38,272 bases of DNA from Planctomycetota bacterium (lineage in GTDB: Bacteria > Planctomycetota > Planctomycetia > Pirellulales > Pirellulaceae). Below are positions 98 to 10,841 of this stretch, in pieces. The DNA lies in the NCBI GenBank assembly GCA_027619595.1, contig JAQCHP010000035.1, positions 1 to 38,272 of the forward strand, read 5' to 3'. The notes under the pieces are model-generated. The model was not told where the DNA came from. It ran no database searches and saw nothing but the letters and a program-made list of their open reading frames with translations. Both the position numbers and the translations under genes were made by a program. Positions within the stretch are counted from its first letter, which is position 1. Every line of letters starts with the position of its first letter.

Positions 98-137
98 CAG
101 CGGGTTACAAGCGAGACAAACTGAATGTAACCCGCTG
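98..137. repeat. Perfect 12-bp inverted repeat, possible terminator
   Basis: The arms CAGCGGGTTACA (98-109) and TGTAACCCGCTG (126-137) are perfectly complementary and are separated by 16 bases. The repeat lies about 60 bases beyond the stop codon of the minus-strand BBP7 gene, so a 3'-end hairpin for that transcript is the simplest reading. Neither strand has a T-run after the stem, so it is not a textbook intrinsic terminator. The remaining bases of 1-195 show no gene that I can support. Confidence 0.5.
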
Positions 138-195
138 GCGTAAAAGAGCCCAGAGTGCATGAACTGGCACGCCCAGAACCTACCGGACCGCGCAT

Positions 196-1413
196 CTAGA
201 ACCCAAATACAATCCCAAGGCTTGGACCGTGGATGATCGTATTGCCTCGGTGCTGTAGCTGGACCGGACCGGAAGCGGTCAGGTTGATGTCGTTGTTAAA
301 GTTCTGCGTGGCCAGGGCGACATCGGTTAACCAGACGGCATTGTATCCAGCACGCAAGGTCAAACGAGGGGTAAACTGATGATTACAATGCATCATCAAT
401 TCACCCAAGAAAGACGTATGATTCCCTTCATCCGTGCCATCAAACGATCCGATCGGCGCCGCAGCACTATTGGTACGCAGGAACGAGGATCGCAACTCGA
501 TATCGTTGGCATAGATGCCCGCCTTCCCCTCGAGGTCGACCCACGTGCGTGGCGTAGCTAAAAATTGCGACATGAACCCGACTTGGGGGCCGATCAGTTC
601 ATTCGTCGTCGTAAGCTGAATCGAGTTCCCCGTTCCGCCCGCCGGCAAATCGGATTGAGTGAGATAGGTGAGTGAATCATCCAAGCTGACATATCGAATT
701 CCCAGCAACAGTGACAGCTCTGCTCGTTCTTGAAATAGGTAGGGTTCTCCTTCGTTGTGTATCGAGGCGTGGGACAACCGATGCGGCGACCTCATCCGAA
801 CTCTTCGCCGCAGATTAATTTCTGCGTTGGAAAAACTTGATTCGTAGCCAACGGTGGCGAAGGTATTGAAATCAACGCCGGCGATCCCTTGTGGACTGCC
901 GAAGCCGCTAAATGGCGAATAAAGATTTCCAGCACCGGGCTGTGCGGGACGGGTAATCGCATCAAGATTCCGCACCGCCATGGTATCGCCCCAACCGAAC
1001 TCGCCAAAATAGGTCCCTTCGAGACGATACCAGTCTCCGAGCGACCGTCCGACGACCAGCCGAGTACCCGCGTCAAAATCGATATCAAAATTATCGCTCC
1101 TCAGGACGTCAGCACCATTCGTACCATTCCTTTGGAATACGACATCGGAAGTTTCATCGCGATACAGTCCCAGCACTTCTGCCGAGGCGTACCAAGTCGG
1201 GAGCTGATTCGTGGGGCACGTTACAGGAATACAGGAATCACTGACACAACCGCGCGGTTAATGCCAATAGAGATTGAACCCGGGCATTGTCTCCAGCAGC
1301 GGTTTGTCGGCGGGACAAGCCTGTGCGAATAAACGTGTGCCCTGAGTGACCAAGGCGAGCGTCAATCCTAAGGCGAACGCCAGCGAGGTCGACCAGAAGT
1401 TCTTTCGCACCAT
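196..1413 (-). pseudogene. BBP7 family outer-membrane beta-barrel protein, interrupted by an in-frame stop
   Basis: Read from ATG 1413, this frame encodes a signal peptide (MVRKNFWSTS, a hydrophobic core, then a likely cut after LFAQA), about 19 further residues, and then a TAA at 1258-1260 in codon 52. The same frame continues without another stop to the TAG at 196. It includes a segment reading WYASAEVLGLYRDE, alternating strand-like stretches such as LLLGIRYVSLDDSLTYL and LTLRAGYNAVWL, and ends in Phe (IVFGF), as outer-membrane barrels usually do. Planctomycete BBP7 proteins have this plan: a signal peptide, a barrel entry shortly after it, and about 400 residues in all (405 here with readthrough). 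The only start after the stop is GTG 1176, which would give a 326-residue protein with no export signal. AAGGA sits 9-10 bases before ATG 1413 and a TGA lies in frame just upstream, which supports that start. I therefore call it a pseudogene or a sequencing error. The family assignment is moderately sure and the stop is certain in the sequence given. Confidence 0.75.
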
Positions 1414-1653
1414 GACCACTCATCCTTGCTTGCAGGTGCTCGACAGCAGCCCAGGTCGGAGTCACGGACTTGTCGCACAAAGCAACCGTCCTTACCCGAC
1501 AATCAGGATCGACAGAACAAGACGTCGACGCCAACACCATCGACCTGCGCGGAACACCCGTCACGTTCATCATGAATCAACAAGAAATGCGCCAGCAGGT
1601 GCGACGAACGCGTGCTTTTTGGAGATGAATGGAGAAGGTCGGGCAAGACGCTA

Positions 1654-2712
1654 CTAAGCCGCTCGTCGCGCAGATGAGGCTAGCAGTCGTTCGCAAGCTC
1701 CACAGACGCGTGCCACATCGATGTCTTGCATGGACCGATTTTGTGGACTCTTGGGCCATCGAAAGCGTTCTTTGTCACGGCTTTCTACCACTTCGTGTCG
1801 TTCGCCATACGGTCCGCATATTTCCGGTTGCGTTGGCCCGTAAAGTCCTACGCAAGCTGTTCCGACTGCCGCCGCTAAGTGCAGCGGGCCCGTATCCGAT
1901 GCGACACAGAGTCGCGCTTGTCGACAGAGAGATGCCAATTGCAAGAGCGTCGTGGCGGGAGCGGTCACGGCATGACCGCCGGAGCGCAAGGCCACATCCT
2001 GCGAAATCCGGAATTCCTCCGGTCCGTGCCAGACCACCAGCGACGGAAGTCGATAGCGTTGTCCGAGAAAGCGAGCGAGTCGAGCGAAGCGTTGGGCGGG
2101 CCAGATTTTCGACGGCCATCCGGCCCCACAATTCACCAATGCGTAGTGGCCAGGGGGGAGATGTGCTTGCCGCAAGATCTCCCGCGCTTGCTGATCGACT
2201 TCGGCTGAACGTGGGACAACAAATTCCACTTCGGGCGACACGACGTCCAAGCCACGCAAGAGCTGTAGATATCGCTGCACGACGTGGGAAGGTTCCGCGC
2301 GGATTACTTGGTTATTCAACCACGGTGCCAATTCTCGGCCGAAGGGACGTGCGAGCCCAATGCGACGATCAGCCCCAGAAAGCCTGGCCACCAAAGCGCT
2401 CTTGGTGAGGCTTTGTGGATCGAGGCTGACATCGGCGCCGAAGGCGGCCAGTCGTGCCCGCAATTGGAAAATCCCTGTTACGGAACGCAATTCGTTGCGC
2501 CGAACGATAATGAGCTCATCGAGCTGGGGATGCCCACGGAGCAATTCGGCGGGACCAGGCTGCGTGGCCCATGCCAATTTTGCCTCGGGGAATTTCCGTC
2601 GCAACGCTGATAGCAACGGCAGCGTGTGAATGCAGTCACCGATCGCACTGAGTCGCGATATCAATATTCGCTTCGGTTGTTCGACCGCGGAAGATTTCGA
2701 CCTAGCTGACAT
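1654..2712 (-). CDS. Glycosyltransferase family 9 (heptosyltransferase-like)
   Basis: This 352-residue protein has the two-domain GT-B plan of ADP-heptose:LPS heptosyltransferases. The N-terminal donor-side opening is RILISRLSAIGDCIHTLPLL (about residues 15-34). A C-terminal nucleotide-sugar motif, SDTGPLHLAAAVGT, followed by VGLYGPT, lies at about residues 272-294. The motif NCGAGWPSKIWP in the middle is also typical. The family adds sugars to lipopolysaccharide core or related envelope glycans at the cytoplasmic face of the inner membrane. The exact sugar cannot be told from sequence. The gene begins 30 bases after the DUF4254 gene and is probably co-transcribed with it. The BBP7 barrel gene follows 240 bases downstream, so the cluster looks envelope-related. 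The family call is firm and the substrate is unknown. Confidence 0.9.
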   Translation of the reverse strand: MSARSKSSAVEQPKRILISRLSAIGDCIHTLPLLSALRRKFPEAKLAWATQPGPAELLRGHPQLDELIIVRRNELRSVTGIFQLRARLAAFGADVSLDPQSLTKSALVARLSGADRRIGLARPFGRELAPWLNNQVIRAEPSHVVQRYLQLLRGLDVVSPEVEFVVPRSAEVDQQAREILRQAHLPPGHYALVNCGAGWPSKIWPAQRFARLARFLGQRYRLPSLVVWHGPEEFRISQDVALRSGGHAVTAPATTLLQLASLCRQARLCVASDTGPLHLAAAVGTACVGLYGPTQPEICGPYGERHEVVESRDKERFRWPKSPQNRSMQDIDVARVCGACERLLASSARRAA

Positions 2713-2742
2713 ATCCAGTTACTTCCCAAATGTCCCGAGAAA

Positions 2743-3345
2743 TTAGGCAACTTTCTTGTCCGACTGGTAGAGATATGGGTTCAATGTAGGATCGTTGTAC
2801 ATCTTGAGCTGCCGGTAATTCAAGTGTCGCTTTTCGCCCGACCGAATTGCATCGAGCAATCGCTGTAACGCGAGCGATAAATCGTCTCGCTGCTGTCGGC
2901 ATACGGTCAATTTGCTGTGGCAACCTTGTCGGTGCTCCGCAGTCGCATCCTGACGCTTACACTGTTCATCTAAGTGGTAAATCCTCAGGGAAATTATCGA
3001 CAATCGATCAATGGCACTCCCTGGGGTCTCTGTGTTGTGTTCAGCGTCGAACCGATGGGTAATCCGGTGCTGCTGAAGTTCGCCCGATATCCAATCGTCG
3101 ACTTTTTCAATCCAATCGTTCCTCTGTTGGTTGAATCGGTCGATTGAGCGTTTGACTGTGGCAATATTTGCATCGGAGACGTCAGGGCTGCGTGCTATGT
3201 CTTCCTGGTGCCAGAGTTGAAAATTAAATCCATGCTGAACACAGATCGTACCGAGGATACCCGTATAGGGATGATCTAATTCTTGCGCATGCCATCGAAC
3301 AACCATTTCGTCATGCAACTTCAAAATTTTTGGCACGTGAATCAT
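2743..3345 (-). CDS. DUF4254 domain-containing protein
   Basis: A soluble, helix-rich protein of about 200 residues with no signal peptide or membrane segment. It carries the characteristic DUF4254 blocks: LWHQEDIARSPDVSD near the N-terminus, VKRSIDRFNQQRNDWIEKVD in the middle, TPGSAIDRLSIISLRIYHLDEQ after it, and YRQLKMYNDPTLNPYLY at the C-terminus. The frame is open back to ATG 3381, but ATG 3345 is preceded by AAGGAG with eight bases spacing and gives the usual family length, so I prefer it. The biochemical role of DUF4254 is not known to me. Its place 30 bases before a GT9 glycosyltransferase suggests a role in glycan assembly, which is inference from position only. Confidence 0.88.
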   Translation of the reverse strand: MIHVPKILKLHDEMVVRWHAQELDHPYTGILGTICVQHGFNFQLWHQEDIARSPDVSDANIATVKRSIDRFNQQRNDWIEKVDDWISGELQQHRITHRFDAEHNTETPGSAIDRLSIISLRIYHLDEQCKRQDATAEHRQGCHSKLTVCRQQRDDLSLALQRLLDAIRSGEKRHLNYRQLKMYNDPTLNPYLYQSDKKVA

Positions 3346-3413
3346 GGGCACCACTCCTTGAATTCGACTTACTTTTTCCATTCGCTCGGGAATTTTCCCC
3401 AGGGTCGGCGCGG

Positions 3414-3443
3414 ATCTTAGAGCAATTTCGTATCTACCTGCAA
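3414..3443 (-). promoter_or_regulatory. Candidate promoter for the DUF4254-GT9 unit
   Basis: On the minus strand TTGCAG (3443-3438) and TAAGAT (3419-3414) are separated by 18 bases, a weak match to a housekeeping -35/-10 pair. It lies about 70 bases before the preferred start codon at 3345. The match is modest, so this is only a candidate. Confidence 0.3.
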
Positions 3444-3494
3444 TTGCGATTATGTTGGCGAATGTCGCGCATCGTTGGGTACATCCAGAGGTAC

Positions 3495-3535
3495 AAAAAA
3501 AAAAGCCCCCGGAAAGGCTCGGTTCCCCGGGGGGC
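3495..3535 (-). terminator. Intrinsic terminator on the minus strand
   Basis: GCCCCC (3505-3510) pairs with GGGGGC (3530-3535). GGAA (3511-3514) continues the stem with TTCC (3523-3526), leaving a three-base bulge and an eight-base loop. On the minus strand the stem is followed at once by ten T residues (complement of 3495-3504). This is a textbook Rho-independent terminator for transcripts coming from higher coordinates. The nearest protein gene it could serve is the sulfite reductase, whose stop is 360 bases away, or an RNA encoded in between. Confidence 0.85.
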
Positions 3536-3894
3536 GGGGGATTCCGTTATTTCCGGGAGCGATTGGACGAAACAGACCGCTCGGTCGTATCTTTTTTATG
3601 CCGTGAAGCACAGCGAACTTGGGCTTCCATGCCCGCGTTCGCCGCTAGCGGCTCGCAGAATTCCCCGCAGGAACTCCCGATGCGAACTCGCGATAGTTGC
3701 CCTGGCCCTTGGTACGGTTAGCTCAACATCCTGTCTCGCCGCCGCCCGACCAAAGAACTTGCTTAACGAGGCGGGAGAATACGCCAACGCCTACCTACGG
3801 GTCAAGGCAAGTTTTTGAATGTTCTTCGTAAGGTAGGTGACCCAACGTGCTGGCATGCTACCAATACGTTGGGTAGGTCCAATTGACCAATTTC

Positions 3895-5604
3895 CTAACG
3901 AAATTTTTCAGAGAATTCAGCGAGTTTTTCTTGGCCTTGTCGAAAACAAAAATCACCCAATGTCTCGTTAGGTTCGCGTTGGCTCTTAAAGAACGCCAAC
4001 ACTGGCCGTAAGGTAGGGACAATGTCGTCAGCCGCTACGAGATCTTTGTAGACAAAGTTGAGACGGTCGCCGAGCCGTCTCCCGCCCAAGTACACCGTGT
4101 ATTTACCGAGAGTCTTTCCGACCAGGCCGATATCGGAATTGTAAGGCCGCGCGCACGCATTGGGGCATCCGGTCATGCGGACCGTGAATTCATCGCGGTC
4201 CAAAGCCAGTTTCGCCAATTCGACTTCCAACTGGTCGATAATACCCGGTAACGCTCGTTCTGATTCGGTAATCGCCAATCCACATGTGGGCCAAGCGACA
4301 CACGCCATCGACCAACGCCGCACCGTAGAGATATCTTCCGACAACGGCACGCCGGCGTCTCGTAAGATGGTTTCTAATTCCAGGCGACGGTCAGGAACGA
4401 TATCCGTAAACAGGATACTCTGGTGCGAGGTTAAGCGAATTTCTGACGGGAATTCGCGACAGATCCTTCTTAACGCCGACTTGAGCTTCATTTTCTCATT
4501 GTCGACAATACGGCCGTTTTCGATATTCAGCCCGTAATACAACAAGCCGTCGCCTTGCTCGCGCCAACCGATATGATCATCGAAGCCTGTGACATCCGCA
4601 GCAGTGGGAGGAGTCAACGCGCGACCGTAGTACTCTTCGACTTTAGCGCGGAAGGCGTCCAGGCCCCAGTTGTGGATTAAGTACTTCAGTCGAGCAACTT
4701 TGCGGTCCTCGCGATTGCCAAAATCACGTTGCACGCACACGACGGCTTCTGCCACAGCAACGGCTTGGTCCGGGGTAACGAAAGCCAGTTTCTTCGCCAA
4801 TGCCGGAAACGTCTTGACGGCCGTCGGCGTAACTCCCATGCCGCCACCGACGAGCACATTGTAGCCTTCCACGCGCCCGCCCACACAAATGGCCATGAAG
4901 GCGAGGTCATTGGTATACATATCAACACAGTTGTCGTCTGGCAGACCGACGGCCGTTTTGAATTTGCGTGGCAAATACGTCTTGCCATAGATTGGTTCGA
5001 TGACCTCGTCTGGACCGCCACCCACCAATTCCTTTTCACCGTTCTCGGGATGCGTTAGCCAGATTTGGTGATAGGATTTCGTACGCGGCGCGAGATGCTC
5101 AGTCAATGCATCGGTGAGATTTTGCATTTCCTGATGAACTGGGTCGTTGCGATGTGGCGCAGGGCAGCACATGACGTTTCGCTGTAGATCACCGCATGCG
5201 CCCAGAGTTGTCAACTGCACGGAATTAATGCGTTCAATGACCGGCTGCAGCCGGTCCTTCAAGATTCCATGCAACTGCAGCCCCTGGCGACTCGTAACAC
5301 GGAGGGTGGTATCACCCAATTCGTCACACAAGTCCAACTCTGCCAGCAACTGACGACTGGTAAGCTTACCCCCTGGAATACGAGTCCTTACCATGAAACT
5401 GTAGTATTTATCGCGCCCCATCGCCCGAGCCTCCTTACGGAGATCCCGATGGTCCTGCTGGTACGTGCCATGGTGCTTGAGGAGGTGGGTGCTTTCCTTG
5501 CTAAAAAACGGGTTTTCGTCTTTCAGTTCTGCGGGAATCGTCCCCTGTAGGTAGTGGCTTTCAAGTTTGGTTTGTTCGACCGGGTTCAAATTTTCTTCGG
5601 ACAT
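3895..5604 (-). CDS. cysI: Sulfite reductase, siroheme/[4Fe-4S] subunit (CysI-like)
   Basis: A 569-residue siroheme protein that reduces sulfite to sulfide in assimilatory sulfur metabolism. It has the duplicated ferredoxin-like and catalytic halves of the sulfite/nitrite reductase family. The cluster and siroheme ligands are all visible: Cys435 and Cys441 in ACVAWPTCGLAITESER, and Cys480 and Cys484 in RMTGCPNACARPY. This is the C-x5-C / C-x3-C pattern, offset by one residue from E. coli CysI. The N-terminal half has RVTSRQGLQLHG and GDLQRNVMCCPAP, which contact siroheme and substrate in relatives. The frame is open to ATG 5685, but homologues begin near SEENLNPVEQTKLESHYLQG, so I chose ATG 5604. 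No flavoprotein subunit gene is adjacent, so the electron donor (NADPH flavoprotein or ferredoxin) is open. An assimilatory nitrite reductase of the same fold is the alternative. Confidence 0.88.
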   Translation of the reverse strand: MSEENLNPVEQTKLESHYLQGTIPAELKDENPFFSKESTHLLKHHGTYQQDHRDLRKEARAMGRDKYYSFMVRTRIPGGKLTSRQLLAELDLCDELGDTTLRVTSRQGLQLHGILKDRLQPVIERINSVQLTTLGACGDLQRNVMCCPAPHRNDPVHQEMQNLTDALTEHLAPRTKSYHQIWLTHPENGEKELVGGGPDEVIEPIYGKTYLPRKFKTAVGLPDDNCVDMYTNDLAFMAICVGGRVEGYNVLVGGGMGVTPTAVKTFPALAKKLAFVTPDQAVAVAEAVVCVQRDFGNREDRKVARLKYLIHNWGLDAFRAKVEEYYGRALTPPTAADVTGFDDHIGWREQGDGLLYYGLNIENGRIVDNEKMKLKSALRRICREFPSEIRLTSHQSILFTDIVPDRRLELETILRDAGVPLSEDISTVRRWSMACVAWPTCGLAITESERALPGIIDQLEVELAKLALDRDEFTVRMTGCPNACARPYNSDIGLVGKTLGKYTVYLGGRRLGDRLNFVYKDLVAADDIVPTLRPVLAFFKSQREPNETLGDFCFRQGQEKLAEFSEKFR

Positions 5605-5645
5605 GTTATTTTTGGACGGCTCACGTGAAAGAAGCAGAAGAACGG

Positions 5646-5695
5646 ACGGGGCCACACGGACGTAGCGATTCCCGGCCCCGTACATTGTGGCCGGG
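5646..5695. promoter_or_regulatory. Two overlapping, mutually exclusive hairpins between cysI and pgpA
   Basis: ACGGGGCC (5646-5653) can pair with GGCCCCGT (5674-5681). CCCGGCC (5671-5677) can instead pair with GGCCGGG (5689-5695). The two stems share 5674-5677 and cannot form together. They lie 42 bases or more before the cysI start on the minus strand and 70 or more before pgpA on the plus strand. They could be a switchable leader or simply GC-rich repeats. Confidence 0.4.
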
Positions 5696-5765
5696 ATAAA
5701 TTCTTGGTCAATACAAGTTCGGCCAATCTAGGGCCCTCAGCAGGAAAAAAAACGGAACGATACGC

Positions 5766-6266
5766 ATGGGGACAGCTTCGCCACGGGGTACGCAATCGGA
5801 TACGGACCGAATCCTCTCTTGGTTTGCGACTTTGGGCAGCGTCGGCACTTTTCCGGGAGGCCCAGGCACGTATGGGGCTGCCCTGGGGGTTGGCGCCTAT
5901 GTCTGTTTAGGATGGTTGCCACCATCGTTTGTGTTTTTCGTGGGGATCGCCGCGTGCGTGATTGGCGTTCCGATCTGTGGGGCCGCCGCACGGCATTTCG
6001 CCACAGGCGACCCATCCCAAGTAATTTGGGACGAATTCGCCAGCGTGCTGTTATTGTGTACCTGTCTCCCAACTACCGTGACGAGCCAAGCGTGGGGACT
6101 ACTACTAGGATTCTTGCTCCACCGAGCATTTGACATCTTCAAACCTCCACCGGTCGCACAATTCGAGCAGTTGCCGGGTGGCTGGGGCATCATGGCAGAC
6201 GACTTGATGGCTGGACTTTATGCGTGGCTGATCCTGCAAATCCTACCTCAGGCATTTGGCCAATAG
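5766..6266 (+). CDS. pgpA: Phosphatidylglycerophosphatase A
   Basis: A 166-residue inner-membrane enzyme that removes the phosphate from phosphatidylglycerophosphate to give phosphatidylglycerol. The PgpA signatures are present: an N-terminal stretch with GTFPGGPGTYGAALG (about residues 27-41), the acidic motif DPSQVIWDEFAS in the middle, and FDIFKPPPV followed by LPGGWGIMADDLMAGLYA near the C-terminus. Three to four hydrophobic segments separate them. The gene is divergent from cysI. It is followed after 21 bases by folD, so the two probably share a transcript. No strong ribosome site precedes ATG 5766 (CGGAACG is closest), so a slightly later start is possible. Confidence 0.9.
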   Translation: MGTASPRGTQSDTDRILSWFATLGSVGTFPGGPGTYGAALGVGAYVCLGWLPPSFVFFVGIAACVIGVPICGAAARHFATGDPSQVIWDEFASVLLLCTCLPTTVTSQAWGLLLGFLLHRAFDIFKPPPVAQFEQLPGGWGIMADDLMAGLYAWLILQILPQAFGQ

Positions 6267-7819: not shown

Positions 7820-8632
7820 ATGTCCAAAGCATCTCTGGTCCGATTAAGTGACGTCAGCTATTGCCTGCAGGACAGGATGATCTTGCGAGGGGTATCCTGG
7901 GAGGTCTTGCGCGGTGAACGATGGGCGATTTTGGGTGCCAACGGGAGCGGCAAATCAACGCTTCTCAGGCTGGCAGCGGGTTACGTCCGTCCCAACGCGG
8001 GGGGCGAGATCTGCTGGCGAGACGAACGACGTATTGATTTGCGGGACTTACGGCTAGGAATTGGGTGGGTGTCAGACTCGATCTCGGCGGACGTTCCGAT
8101 CGACGAACCTGTGCTCGATACGGTTGTTTCCGGCCGTTTCGCTCAGGTCGGACTCGTTCCGTATCCCGGGTATGAACCGAACGAGTCCGACTACGAGGAC
8201 GCTCGGTCCAAATTGTCTGTCTTGGGATTCCAGCACCTTGCATCGGAGCGCTTCGGATATCTATCTCAGGGCGAGAAGCAGCTAGTACTCATTGCGCGCG
8301 CGTGCATGGCCCAGCCGTGGTGGATCGTTCTCGACGAACCATGTGCCGGACTCGATCCAGGAGCTCGTGAACGCTTCTTAGACTCGCTACAGCGATTCCT
8401 TCTCGCAGAACCGAAACTGAGTGTCGCGTTTGTCACGCATCACTTGGAAGAGATCTTGCCTGAATTTGAGTCGCTACTGGTCGTGAAAGAGGGGCAGATC
8501 GTCGCGTCGGGAAAGAAAAGGCAAATCCTGACAAACCGACTGCTAGCGGATTTATATCAAGTTGCCGTGGAGGAATTGGCGGAGCGCAACGGCAGATACT
8601 GGCCGGTATTTGCTCCGTCGAGTCGCCCGTAG
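7820..8632 (+). CDS. ABC transporter ATP-binding protein
   Basis: A 270-residue stand-alone ABC ATPase. Walker A is GANGSGKST (about residues 38-46), the signature is YLSQGEKQLVLIAR, Walker B is WWIVLDEPCAGLD and the switch His is in FVTHHLEEI. The subtype resembles cytosolic ATPases of the molybdate/iron-complex branch (YlmA/ModF-like). No permease or binding protein is next to it, so its transport partner, if any, is elsewhere. The frame is open to ATG 7760, but MSKASLVRLSDVSY from ATG 7820 gives a normal family start, with AGGG shortly before it. The substrate is not predictable. Confidence 0.88.
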   Translation: MSKASLVRLSDVSYCLQDRMILRGVSWEVLRGERWAILGANGSGKSTLLRLAAGYVRPNAGGEICWRDERRIDLRDLRLGIGWVSDSISADVPIDEPVLDTVVSGRFAQVGLVPYPGYEPNESDYEDARSKLSVLGFQHLASERFGYLSQGEKQLVLIARACMAQPWWIVLDEPCAGLDPGARERFLDSLQRFLLAEPKLSVAFVTHHLEEILPEFESLLVVKEGQIVASGKKRQILTNRLLADLYQVAVEELAERNGRYWPVFAPSSRP

Positions 8633-8705
8633 GTAGCAAGCGGCGCCTTGTTGCTGTGACTGCACCGACCAACCTTTCGGTCATCTAGAAGATTCATCAA
8701 CCCAG

Positions 8706-8720
8706 CGTCCAAGCTGGACG
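8706..8720. repeat. Small 6-bp stem, 3-base loop
   Basis: CGTCCA-AGC-TGGACG forms a compact hairpin 73 bases after the ABC ATPase stop. There is no T-run. It could mark the 3' end of that transcript, but short stems like this also arise by chance. Confidence 0.25.
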
Positions 8721-8822
8721 AATAGACAGGAGCATAGCTTTTGATTGCCTCTTGGCTTGCACCCCCTGTATCTGATAATGTCCCGCCAAACTTGCCCACA
8801 TCCATGATCGAAGCGTGAACCC

Positions 8823-8858
8823 ACGATTTCGTCGGGACACCCCGCAACACGAAATCGT
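8823..8858. repeat. Perfect 10-bp inverted repeat upstream of the ABC exporter
   Basis: ACGATTTCGT (8823-8832) and ACGAAATCGT (8849-8858) are perfect reverse complements separated by 16 bases. Each arm is itself partly palindromic. The repeat ends 30 bases before the exporter start codon, so it could be an operator or a leader hairpin affecting translation. Confidence 0.5.
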
Positions 8859-8888
8859 CTCCCCAAACCCTGCTCTCTGCGCTACCGT

Positions 8889-10841
8889 ATGAAAAACTTT
8901 TCTCGTGCCCTTCGCGAAGCTTCCAAATACTGGCACCTACTAGTGTTGGCAACCCTCAGTTCGATGGGAGTGGCATTCCTGTGGGGAGGAAACATAGGTG
9001 CTCTGTTTCCGATTATTGAAGTGACGCTGGCCGGCAAGCCGTTGCAGGATTGGATTGAGGCCGAAATCGGCAAGTCACAGACGGCAATTATCGACTGTCG
9101 TAACACGATTGAGGAATTGAAGCGGCAACAGATATCAGCAGACGGTGCGAAGCACACTTTGCTCGAAATCGAGATCTCCAAACTCGACGCCAGACAACAC
9201 ACCGAAGCGGCCGCCATTGCCTGGTCGCAAAAACTCAAGCCCTATATTGATTACTACTTACCGCGCAGTCCATTCCAAACTGTACAACTTATCGTCGCCG
9301 TGCTTTTCGTTGCGACGATTGTCAAACATATTCTACTACTGGCGAATAGTTATTTGATCTCCAAAGTAGCCTGCCAAATCTCACGCGACATACGCCTGCG
9401 CATCTTCCGTAAGGCGCTCAGCATGGACCGTGCTGGCTTTACGCGATATGGCAGCAGTGGGTTTTCCGCTCATATTGCTCACACTACAGAAACGTTGGCG
9501 AATGGCATCACGAGCGTTTATGGCGGCGCGATTCGGGAGCCCTTAAAATTAATGTCCTGCCTGGCAGGTGCCTGCTTCATTTGCTGGCGGTTGGTCATTA
9601 TATCGCTGATTATTGTCCCGGTGGTCGCGGTTCTGGTTGTGTGGCTCAGCCGAAGCATCAAGAACGTTTGCCAGAGTTTGATCGAGAATGCACTGGGACT
9701 GCACCATGTGATGCTGGAAGCATTCGCGAACATTCACACGGTGCAAGCGTATGGAATGGAATACAAGGAGCAGGAGCGGTTCGAAGCAGCGACTCGGCAA
9801 ATGCTACATTTCTCACTCAAGACGGCTTTCCTGAACTCATTTTCACGTCCGATCACAGAACTCATGGGTGTTGGCATGTTGAGCAGCACCATTCTGGTAA
9901 GTGCCTACCTGGTACTCAACAATACGACGCATTGTTTCGGCGTGCAGATCTGCGACCGGCCGCTCACCATTTCGGCAATTATGGTGTTCTTTGGACTTTT
10001 AGTCGGCGCCACCGATCCGGTTCGGAAGATGTCGACGGTCCTGGAGGGAATCAACACGGGAATTGTAGCGGCCGACGTGCTGTATCCGGTTCTTGATTGC
10101 GAGTCGACGATCAAAGACCCACCCAATCCTCAACCTTTTGAAGAACCGATCCACACGATCGGCCTGCGCAACACTTGGTTTGCTTATTATGGGGAACAGT
10201 GGGTGCTATCGGATGTCAATTTAGATATCCAGCGTGGTACGCGCATCGCTGTGGTTGGACCGAACGGCGCGGGCAAGTCTTCGTTACTGAATCTCGTCTG
10301 CCGTTTTTATGACCCCCAACAGGGAAGCATCCGGTTCAATGACGTTGATCTTCGCGCTATCACGATCGCAAATGTCCGATCCCGAGTCGGGTTGGTCACG
10401 CAACAGACAGAGCTTTTTAATGAATCGATTCGCTACAACCTATGCTATGGTGCTGGAGATGTGACGGAAGAGGAAATCCTTGCTGCCACGCGAATGGCCC
10501 GAGCTCATGATTTTATTGTGAACAAACTTTCCAAGGGTTACGACACGGTCGTGGGGCAGAATGGTCAACGTCTAAGCGGTGGACAACGTCAGCGGATTGC
10601 GCTGGCTCGAGCCATCCTGCGGAATCCTGAAATTTTGATCCTCGACGAAGCGACCAGCCAGGTAGACTACGAAAGCGAGGTCTTGATCCGCGAAGCGCTG
10701 CTGGAGTTCAGCCACGACAAGATCGTGATTATGGTAACTCACCAAAACACGTTGCTTGAAATCGCCGATCGCGTACTCGAGGTAAATGAAGGGCAACTAA
10801 CGGAGCGCAGCCGACCGGCAGCGGAACTTCGCGTGGCGTAG
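8889..10841 (+). CDS. ABC transporter, fused permease and ATPase (MsbA-like exporter)
   Basis: A 650-residue half-transporter of the type I exporter family. The N-terminal half has about six hydrophobic segments, for example residues 16-45 and 135-160, and then pairs further on. The C-terminal half is the ATPase: Walker A GPNGAGKSS (about 456-464), Q-loop LVTQQTELF, signature LSGGQRQRIALARAI (about 561), Walker B ILILDEATSQ, and switch His in MVTHQ. Proteins of this kind flip lipids or export lipopeptides and other hydrophobic cargo. It probably works as a homodimer in the inner membrane. Unusually, about 75 mostly polar residues rich in Glu, Lys and Gln are inserted between the first and second membrane segments, presumably on the periplasmic side. 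No ribosome site is evident before ATG 8889. Confidence 0.92.
   Translation: MKNFSRALREASKYWHLLVLATLSSMGVAFLWGGNIGALFPIIEVTLAGKPLQDWIEAEIGKSQTAIIDCRNTIEELKRQQISADGAKHTLLEIEISKLDARQHTEAAAIAWSQKLKPYIDYYLPRSPFQTVQLIVAVLFVATIVKHILLLANSYLISKVACQISRDIRLRIFRKALSMDRAGFTRYGSSGFSAHIAHTTETLANGITSVYGGAIREPLKLMSCLAGACFICWRLVIISLIIVPVVAVLVVWLSRSIKNVCQSLIENALGLHHVMLEAFANIHTVQAYGMEYKEQERFEAATRQMLHFSLKTAFLNSFSRPITELMGVGMLSSTILVSAYLVLNNTTHCFGVQICDRPLTISAIMVFFGLLVGATDPVRKMSTVLEGINTGIVAADVLYPVLDCESTIKDPPNPQPFEEPIHTIGLRNTWFAYYGEQWVLSDVNLDIQRGTRIAVVGPNGAGKSSLLNLVCRFYDPQQGSIRFNDVDLRAITIANVRSRVGLVTQQTELFNESIRYNLCYGAGDVTEEEILAATRMARAHDFIVNKLSKGYDTVVGQNGQRLSGGQRQRIALARAILRNPEILILDEATSQVDYESEVLIREALLEFSHDKIVIMVTHQNTLLEIADRVLEVNEGQLTERSRPAAELRVA

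What the first reader, a model, noticed from the sequence alone, without database searches (positions are those of the whole stretch)
1258..1260. In-frame stop between the signal peptide and the barrel of a BBP7 outer-membrane protein
ATG 1413 to TAG 196 is a single continuous frame except for one TAA at 1258-1260. The part before the stop is a full signal peptide and the part after it begins with a typical mature-domain entry (WYASAEVLGLYRDE). So one base change has split a complete 405-residue gene. It could be a sequencing error, a recent pseudogene, or a stop that is read through. If recent, the barrel is otherwise intact, with no further damage, which suggests the loss is new or is conditional.
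Basis: partly seen in the sequence, partly recalled or inferred. Interest (0 to 1): 0.55.

Follow-up and report, generated by a model that had tools for sequence, protein, structure and literature searches.

The report
Stop codon interrupting a planctomycete porin gene
An outer-membrane barrel gene of an uncultured planctomycete is cut by a single stop codon inside a motif that its relatives keep intact; it looks like an ordinary freshly broken gene, or possibly an assembly error, and not a new mechanism.

Summary
On the minus strand, ATG 1413 to TAG 196-198 is one frame broken only by TAA 1258-1260. Homology crosses the stop: an intact relative aligns over residues 18-405 with '1 TAA' inside. 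The stop lies in a conserved motif of one BBP7 clade, roughly G-x-[NS]-L-[YF]-W-H-[DN]-P. The 15 other motif-bearing sequences found (14 genomes) have Asp (13) or Asn (2) there. Those codons differ from TAA at two bases, so 'one base change' is not what relatives show. The barrel still models well (pLDDT 84.3), shows no clear rate rise and has no second stop or frameshift; if neutral since the stop, it is younger than about 0.09 substitutions per site. Recoding is unsupported: no tRNA reading UAA was found, TAA ends 9 of 23 delimited window genes, and four further genes in a one-fifth sample of this genome are also cut by one in-frame stop (TAG three times, TGA once) at differing residues. Best reading: a recent nonsense null allele in a metagenome-assembled genome, with consensus error as the main rival. 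Raw reads would decide. Low interest.

The parts
1423..1427 (-). Shine-Dalgarno-like AAGGA, 9 nt before ATG 1413
   Evidence: read by eye from the sequence printed
1261..1413 (-). 51 codons before the stop: signal peptide plus the first part of the conserved mature N-terminus, ending in GFNLYWH
   Evidence: signal peptide judged by eye (basic start, hydrophobic stretch, LFAQA); no signal-peptide program was available
1252..1281 (-). clade motif, roughly G-x-[NS]-L-[YF]-W-H-[DN]-P; in the window GFNLYWH-stop-PR
   Evidence: 15 other sequences carry it with D or N at the stop position; L038, L039 and L049 vary at other motif positions
1258..1260 (-). in-frame TAA
   Evidence: reported as '1 TAA' inside the match
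1248..1259 (-). 12-base perfect palindrome overlapping the stop; one of 15 such palindromes in the window, probably incidental
199..1257 (-). 353 open codons after the stop: beta-barrel domain, terminator TAG at 196-198
265..837 (-). Pfam PF07585 (BBP7) match

Best explanation
A recently inactivated (nonsense) allele of a BBP7-family outer-membrane beta-barrel gene. Translation from ATG 1413 would stop after 51 residues. The released peptide holds the signal sequence and the first part of the mature N-terminus. The barrel has no exported product, because the first in-frame start after the stop (GTG 1176) lacks a signal peptide. Shown: the frame, the stop, its place in a conserved motif, the intact relatives, the absence of other stops or frameshifts, and further single-stop genes in the same assembly. 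Inferred: that the stop is in the cell's DNA, that no full-length protein is made, and that the loss is recent.
For: Homology through the stop. The 15 other motif-bearing sequences found all have a sense codon (D or N) there. In one search, 1 of 91 listed matches has an internal stop, this gene; only 15 of the 91 (this one included) reach across the codon in question. In one search, 1 of 31. No other stop in 353 codons, which bounds neutral age at d below about 0.083-0.094 per site, or about 0.02-0.035 if frameshifting indels are assumed at 5-10% of substitutions. The barrel still folds in the model; relative-rate tests reach p<0.05 with 2 of 12 outgroups against L005 and 0 of 12 against L040. 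Four other genes cut by one stop in a 1.087 Mb sample of this genome: GT2, TAG where 4 of 4 homologues have Leu; DUF1549/DUF1553 protein, TAG opposite L, V, L; M56 peptidase, TAG opposite Arg of BlaR1 (weak, E 0.047); DDE transposase, TGA. Mixed stops and residues suit scattered inactivation. 3 sulfatase matches against 7-108 in 7 relatives fit gene loss in the lineage.
Against: Asp/Asn to TAA needs two base changes, so a single nonsense mutation from the relatives' state does not fit; an intermediate codon or prior relaxation must be assumed. No other genome of the genus is held, so the immediate ancestral codon is unknown. The gene lies at a contig end of a 281-contig assembly, and no reads could be examined. 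Relaxed selection is not clearly shown.
Confidence: 0.6

Rival explanations
1. Consensus or assembly artefact: the organism has an intact gene, and the TAA comes from miscalled bases or from merged strain variants near a contig end.
For: Two bases at one codon differ from every motif-bearing relative while the barrel has no other stop or frameshift; the gene lies 195 bases from the contig end; five single-stop genes in about one fifth of one draft assembly could be base-call errors; a GC-rich palindrome overlaps the site.
Against: The other 22 genes that I delimited in the window are open (they were picked as open frames, so this is weak), and 21 of the 22 have a Pfam match at E 0.001 or better. 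The changes beside the stop (CAT for His where most relatives use CAC; Cys to Arg) look like ordinary divergence. Two wrong calls in one codon seem unlikely to me as a random error.
Confidence: 0.29
2. Read-through, natural suppression or recoding: UAA at 1258 is translated and a full-length porin is made.
For: The barrel is predicted to fold and shows no clear rate rise; four more genes in the sample have one in-frame stop and open frame on both sides, three of them TAG.
Against: None of 59 distinct tRNA genes called has an anticodon for a stop codon. Of three tRNA hits that ARAGORN did not call, two read CGT and CAT by eye, and the third has a six-base loop (CTAAGC) that would at most read UAG, not UAA. 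TAA, TAG and TGA end 9, 7 and 7 of 23 delimited window genes. Residues at the interrupted sites differ (D/N; L; L or V; Arg, weak), and so do the stop codons. No recoding signal was seen by eye.
Confidence: 0.04
3. The barrel is still made from a downstream start, or the 51-residue product has its own function.
For: Start-like codons exist after the stop (GTG 1176 in frame); the leader keeps its SD-like site and signal peptide.
Against: The in-frame product would lack a signal peptide and the conserved N-terminal segment that the 15 motif-bearing relatives have; the sequence printed before GTG 1176 shows no obvious SD-like site.
Confidence: 0.07

Closest known systems
BBP7 family (Pfam PF07585, putative beta-barrel porin-7), in planctomycetes of the family of the window's genome
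   Same: Pfam match over the cut-off; predicted barrel; C-terminal aromatic residue (GIVFGF) just before the stop; relatives with the same N-terminal motif.
   Different: Interrupted by TAA; the weakest of the 8 PF07585 matches in its genome (40.5 bits); part of a divergent clade whose motif was not found in the loci of the 7 other matches.
Recent nonsense pseudogenes in bacterial genomes (search listing and start of abstract seen only: PMC522871, PMC11078800)
   Same: A single in-frame stop, the rest of the gene conserved, intact relatives.
   Different: The codon differs from the relatives' codons at two bases; seen only in an assembled consensus.
Outer-membrane barrels of solved structure: Legionella Dot/Icm porin I (9nh1), omptins (Pla, OmpT), FadL
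   Same: Beta-barrel fold; best hit 9nh1_A, E 1.4e-10, TM-score 0.52 by query length.
   Different: 12% identity; a resemblance of fold only, with no sign of common function.

Membership tests
BBP7 (PF07585) | match to the family profile over the gathering score | tested here: met
   40.6 bits against cut-off 26, profile positions 130-319 of 350; the match is partial
BBP7 (PF07585) | transmembrane beta-barrel | tested here: met
   predicted only: pLDDT 84.3, pTM 0.80, long consecutive strands; nearest solved folds are outer-membrane barrels
BBP7 (PF07585) | exported by an N-terminal signal peptide in frame with the barrel | tested here: not met
   signal-peptide frame and barrel frame are the same, but TAA 1258-1260 separates them
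BBP7 (PF07585) | channel (porin) activity | not testable with these tools
   no experiment possible; the listings showed no paper on BBP7 function
Nonsense pseudogene | orthologues with an intact frame across the lesion | tested here: met
   15 motif-bearing sequences in 14 genomes
Nonsense pseudogene | relaxed selection after the lesion | tested here: inconclusive
   relative-rate tests mostly not significant; 5 of 41 leave-one-out invariant sites changed
Nonsense pseudogene | lesion present in the organism's DNA | not testable with these tools
   no reads and no second genome of the genus
Stop-codon recoding | a tRNA that decodes the stop (here UAA) | tested here: not met
   0 of 59 distinct tRNA calls have a stop anticodon; one uncalled degenerate hit could at most read UAG; assembly 96.4% complete, so a missing gene is not excluded
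Stop-codon recoding | the same stop codon replaces the same residue in several genes | tested here: not met
   TAA at D/N; TAG at L; TAG at L or V; TAG at Arg (weak); TGA, residue not determined

The most novel reading that the evidence does not exclude
This planctomycete lineage tolerates a low level of stop read-through, so that its several single-stop genes (this porin, a glycosyltransferase, a DUF1549/DUF1553 protein, an M56 peptidase) still yield some full-length protein, perhaps with help from unusual tRNAs such as those of the 14-gene tRNA array on contig C28.
Probability: 0.03. Interest if true: 0.7.

Novelty: new member of a known kind. Interest (0 to 1): 0.14.

Why it matters
If real, it is one more recent loss of a surface protein, in a lineage that also holds far fewer sulfatases than its relatives; a small example of ongoing surface remodelling. 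Side products are a motif-defined BBP7 clade and a list of five single-stop genes with which to test whether this assembly's stops are real.

Tried and rejected
Chance open frame: rejected by homology through the stop. Homologues lacking the leader: rejected for the 15 motif-bearing sequences. Frameshift reading: I saw no other frame that joins the parts (by eye). Palindrome as a cause: one of 15 such 12-base palindromes in the window, so not pursued. Promoter scan: nothing sigma-70-like in 1-2800. Viral collection: no relative. Rfam at gathering scores and tRNA in the window: none. NCBIfam: no family for the window protein, L005 or L043.

Survey for other interrupted genes: the codon-usage filters were weak and missed both genes known by then. 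Pfam on 30 read-through candidates, chosen by me from those two lists, gave 3 with a domain crossing the stop: L198 PSCyt2, L196 DDE_Tnp_1, L186 Peptidase_M56. Scanning the parts separately, both parts match for L198 and L186; for L196 only the downstream part does. Self and relative tblastn over 1.087 Mb (84 loci of this genome) listed 18 stops after filtering. I kept 3 and dropped 15: 7 in L220, and those in L181, L211 and L237, as repeats or antisense frames; L174 and L199:5285 as lying before a start codon; L176, L187 and L188 as weak or gapped. About 264 homology-covered regions is the rough denominator. It favours the two genes known beforehand, for which I had fetched relatives, and this search did not list L186 or L196; so no rate can be given, only at least five in the sample.

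Papers: searches were seen as listings with the start of abstracts; PMC4827864 as passages only, where DUF1551 appears under family 1.B.72. That DUF1551 is the old name of PF07585 is recalled.

Full report
Observation. The minus strand of window 196-1413 is one reading frame with a single internal stop, TAA at 1258-1260. It has 51 codons before the stop and 353 after it, ending in TAG at 196-198. The downstream part is a BBP7 (PF07585) protein. AlphaFold2 on an alignment of 15 sequences gives a confident barrel, mean pLDDT 84.3 and pTM 0.80. Foldseek's best solved matches are outer-membrane barrels, led by Legionella Dot/Icm porin I (9nh1_A, E 1.4e-10, 12% identity).

Homology. The closest homologue held (G004, L005, 405 aa, 48% identity) aligns through the stop. 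Across 241 genomes of the family, 91 matches at E 1e-12 are listed and only the window's has an internal stop; 15 of the 91, this one included, reach across the codon in question, the rest cover only the barrel side. In 396 genomes drawn from the order, 31 matches at E 1e-60 are listed and again only this one has a stop. A Pfam search of the own genome lists 8 PF07585 matches with no stop inside the matched part; the window's stop lies upstream of its match.

What stands at codon 52. A clade of BBP7 proteins carries the motif G-x-[NS]-L-[YF]-W-H-[DN]-P, with small variations in L038, L039 and L049, soon after the signal peptide. Fourteen such sequences in alignment A1, and a second copy from G118, have D (13) or N (2) at the window's stop position, coded by GAY or AAY. 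The two with N are the window gene's nearest relatives in the tree. Among the 29 newly fetched loci of the order-level search, the motif appears in L142, L143 and L170 (already in the set) and in the window's own locus with the stop; 25 loci lack it. All four D/N codons differ from TAA at two positions, so the single-base-change story does not follow from the relatives. Either an intermediate codon existed in this lineage, or the motif was already relaxed, or the consensus is wrong. The Cys found right after the motif's Pro in L005 and L040 is Arg in the window. No other genome of the genus is held.

Age and constraint. If the 353 codons had evolved neutrally after the stop, 32-36 further stops per unit of divergence are expected. 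Seeing none bounds d below about 0.083-0.094 per site, or 0.02-0.035 if frameshifts at 5-10% of substitutions are assumed. Tajima relative-rate tests with 12 outgroups give p<0.05 in 2 of 12 against L005 and 0 of 12 against L040; the outgroups are not independent. The window departs from 5 of 41 positions invariant in the other 14 rows; L010 departs from 8 of 44, the rest from 0-3. At positions conserved at 85% or more it keeps 67 of 80; L010 keeps 66 of 82, the others 73-79 of 79-84. So the barrel probably behaved as a working gene for most of its history, with at most mild relaxation.

Recoding test. A tRNA family search gave 55 places. ARAGORN on the fetched regions called 59 distinct tRNA genes, counting once two that lie in two loci; none has a stop anticodon. 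Three Rfam hits were not called: two read CGT and CAT by eye, and one has a six-base loop CTAAGC. Among 23 genes delimited in the window, TAA, TAG and TGA are the terminators of 9, 7 and 7.

Other interrupted genes. While checking the tRNA array on contig C28 I met a GT2 glycosyltransferase with one TAG (L106:4565-4567). Four of 4 homologues have Leu there and no stop. A sample of 1.087 Mb, about a fifth of the genome, added three: a DUF1549/DUF1553 protein on C27 with TAG (L198:9837-9839) opposite L, V and L in three paralogues; an M56 peptidase on C15 with TAG (L186:3251-3253) just after its HELAH motif, opposite Arg in a weak alignment to BlaR1 (E 0.047); and a DDE transposase on C25 with TGA (L196:4769-4771), whose upstream part alone gives no Pfam match. 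Five genes, three stop codons and differing residues do not suit a code change. They suit scattered nonsense alleles or scattered consensus errors. The search was not exhaustive and gives no rate (see Tried and rejected). The genome has 3 sulfatase matches at E 1e-15 against 7, 32, 34, 36, 81, 81 and 108 in seven relatives, of which three (G004, G104, G001) were scored only in part; this fits a lineage that has lost genes, though it does not bear on the porin directly.

Taxon. Relatives in the named collection are titled Pirellulaceae, Planctomycetaceae, Planctomycetota, Blastopirellula and Anammoximicrobium; Pirellulaceae is my inference.

Verdict. A real sequence feature with an ordinary reading: most likely a recent null allele (0.60), next an assembly or consensus error (0.29). 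Read-through is unlikely (0.04). Reads over 1200-1300 would settle it.

Noticed in passing
L106 (G000:C28) 3884-5167 (-), stop at 4565-4567: GT2 glycosyltransferase with a single in-frame TAG where 4 of 4 homologues have Leu; open on both sides.
   Followed up: yes
L198 (G000:C27) 8580-10103 (-), stop at 9837-9839: DUF1549/DUF1553 protein with a single TAG inside the PSCyt2 domain; three paralogues have L, V, L.
   Followed up: partly
L186 (G000:C15) 2495-6160 (+), stop at 3251-3253: M56 (BlaR1-type) peptidase with a single TAG inside the M56 domain, just after HELAHVRR; both parts match the profile.
   Followed up: partly
L196 (G000:C25) 4022-5392 (-), stop at 4769-4771: DDE transposase frame crossed by TGA; the read-through match spans the stop.
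   Followed up: partly
L106 (G000:C28) 107-2405 (-): Array of 14 tRNA genes in 2.3 kb on a contig with response-regulator, glycosyltransferase and HlyD-like genes; origin not determined.
   Followed up: no
L117 (G000:C166:10630-10699, -): tRNA-like hit with a six-base anticodon loop CTAAGC that ARAGORN does not call.
   Followed up: partly
G000, whole genome: Only 3 sulfatase (PF00884) matches at E 1e-15, against 7-108 in seven relatives of the same family.
   Followed up: no
window 1252-1281 and 15 sequences in 14 genomes: A motif G-x-[NS]-L-[YF]-W-H-[DN]-P after the signal peptide marks a BBP7 clade; its role is unknown.
   Followed up: partly
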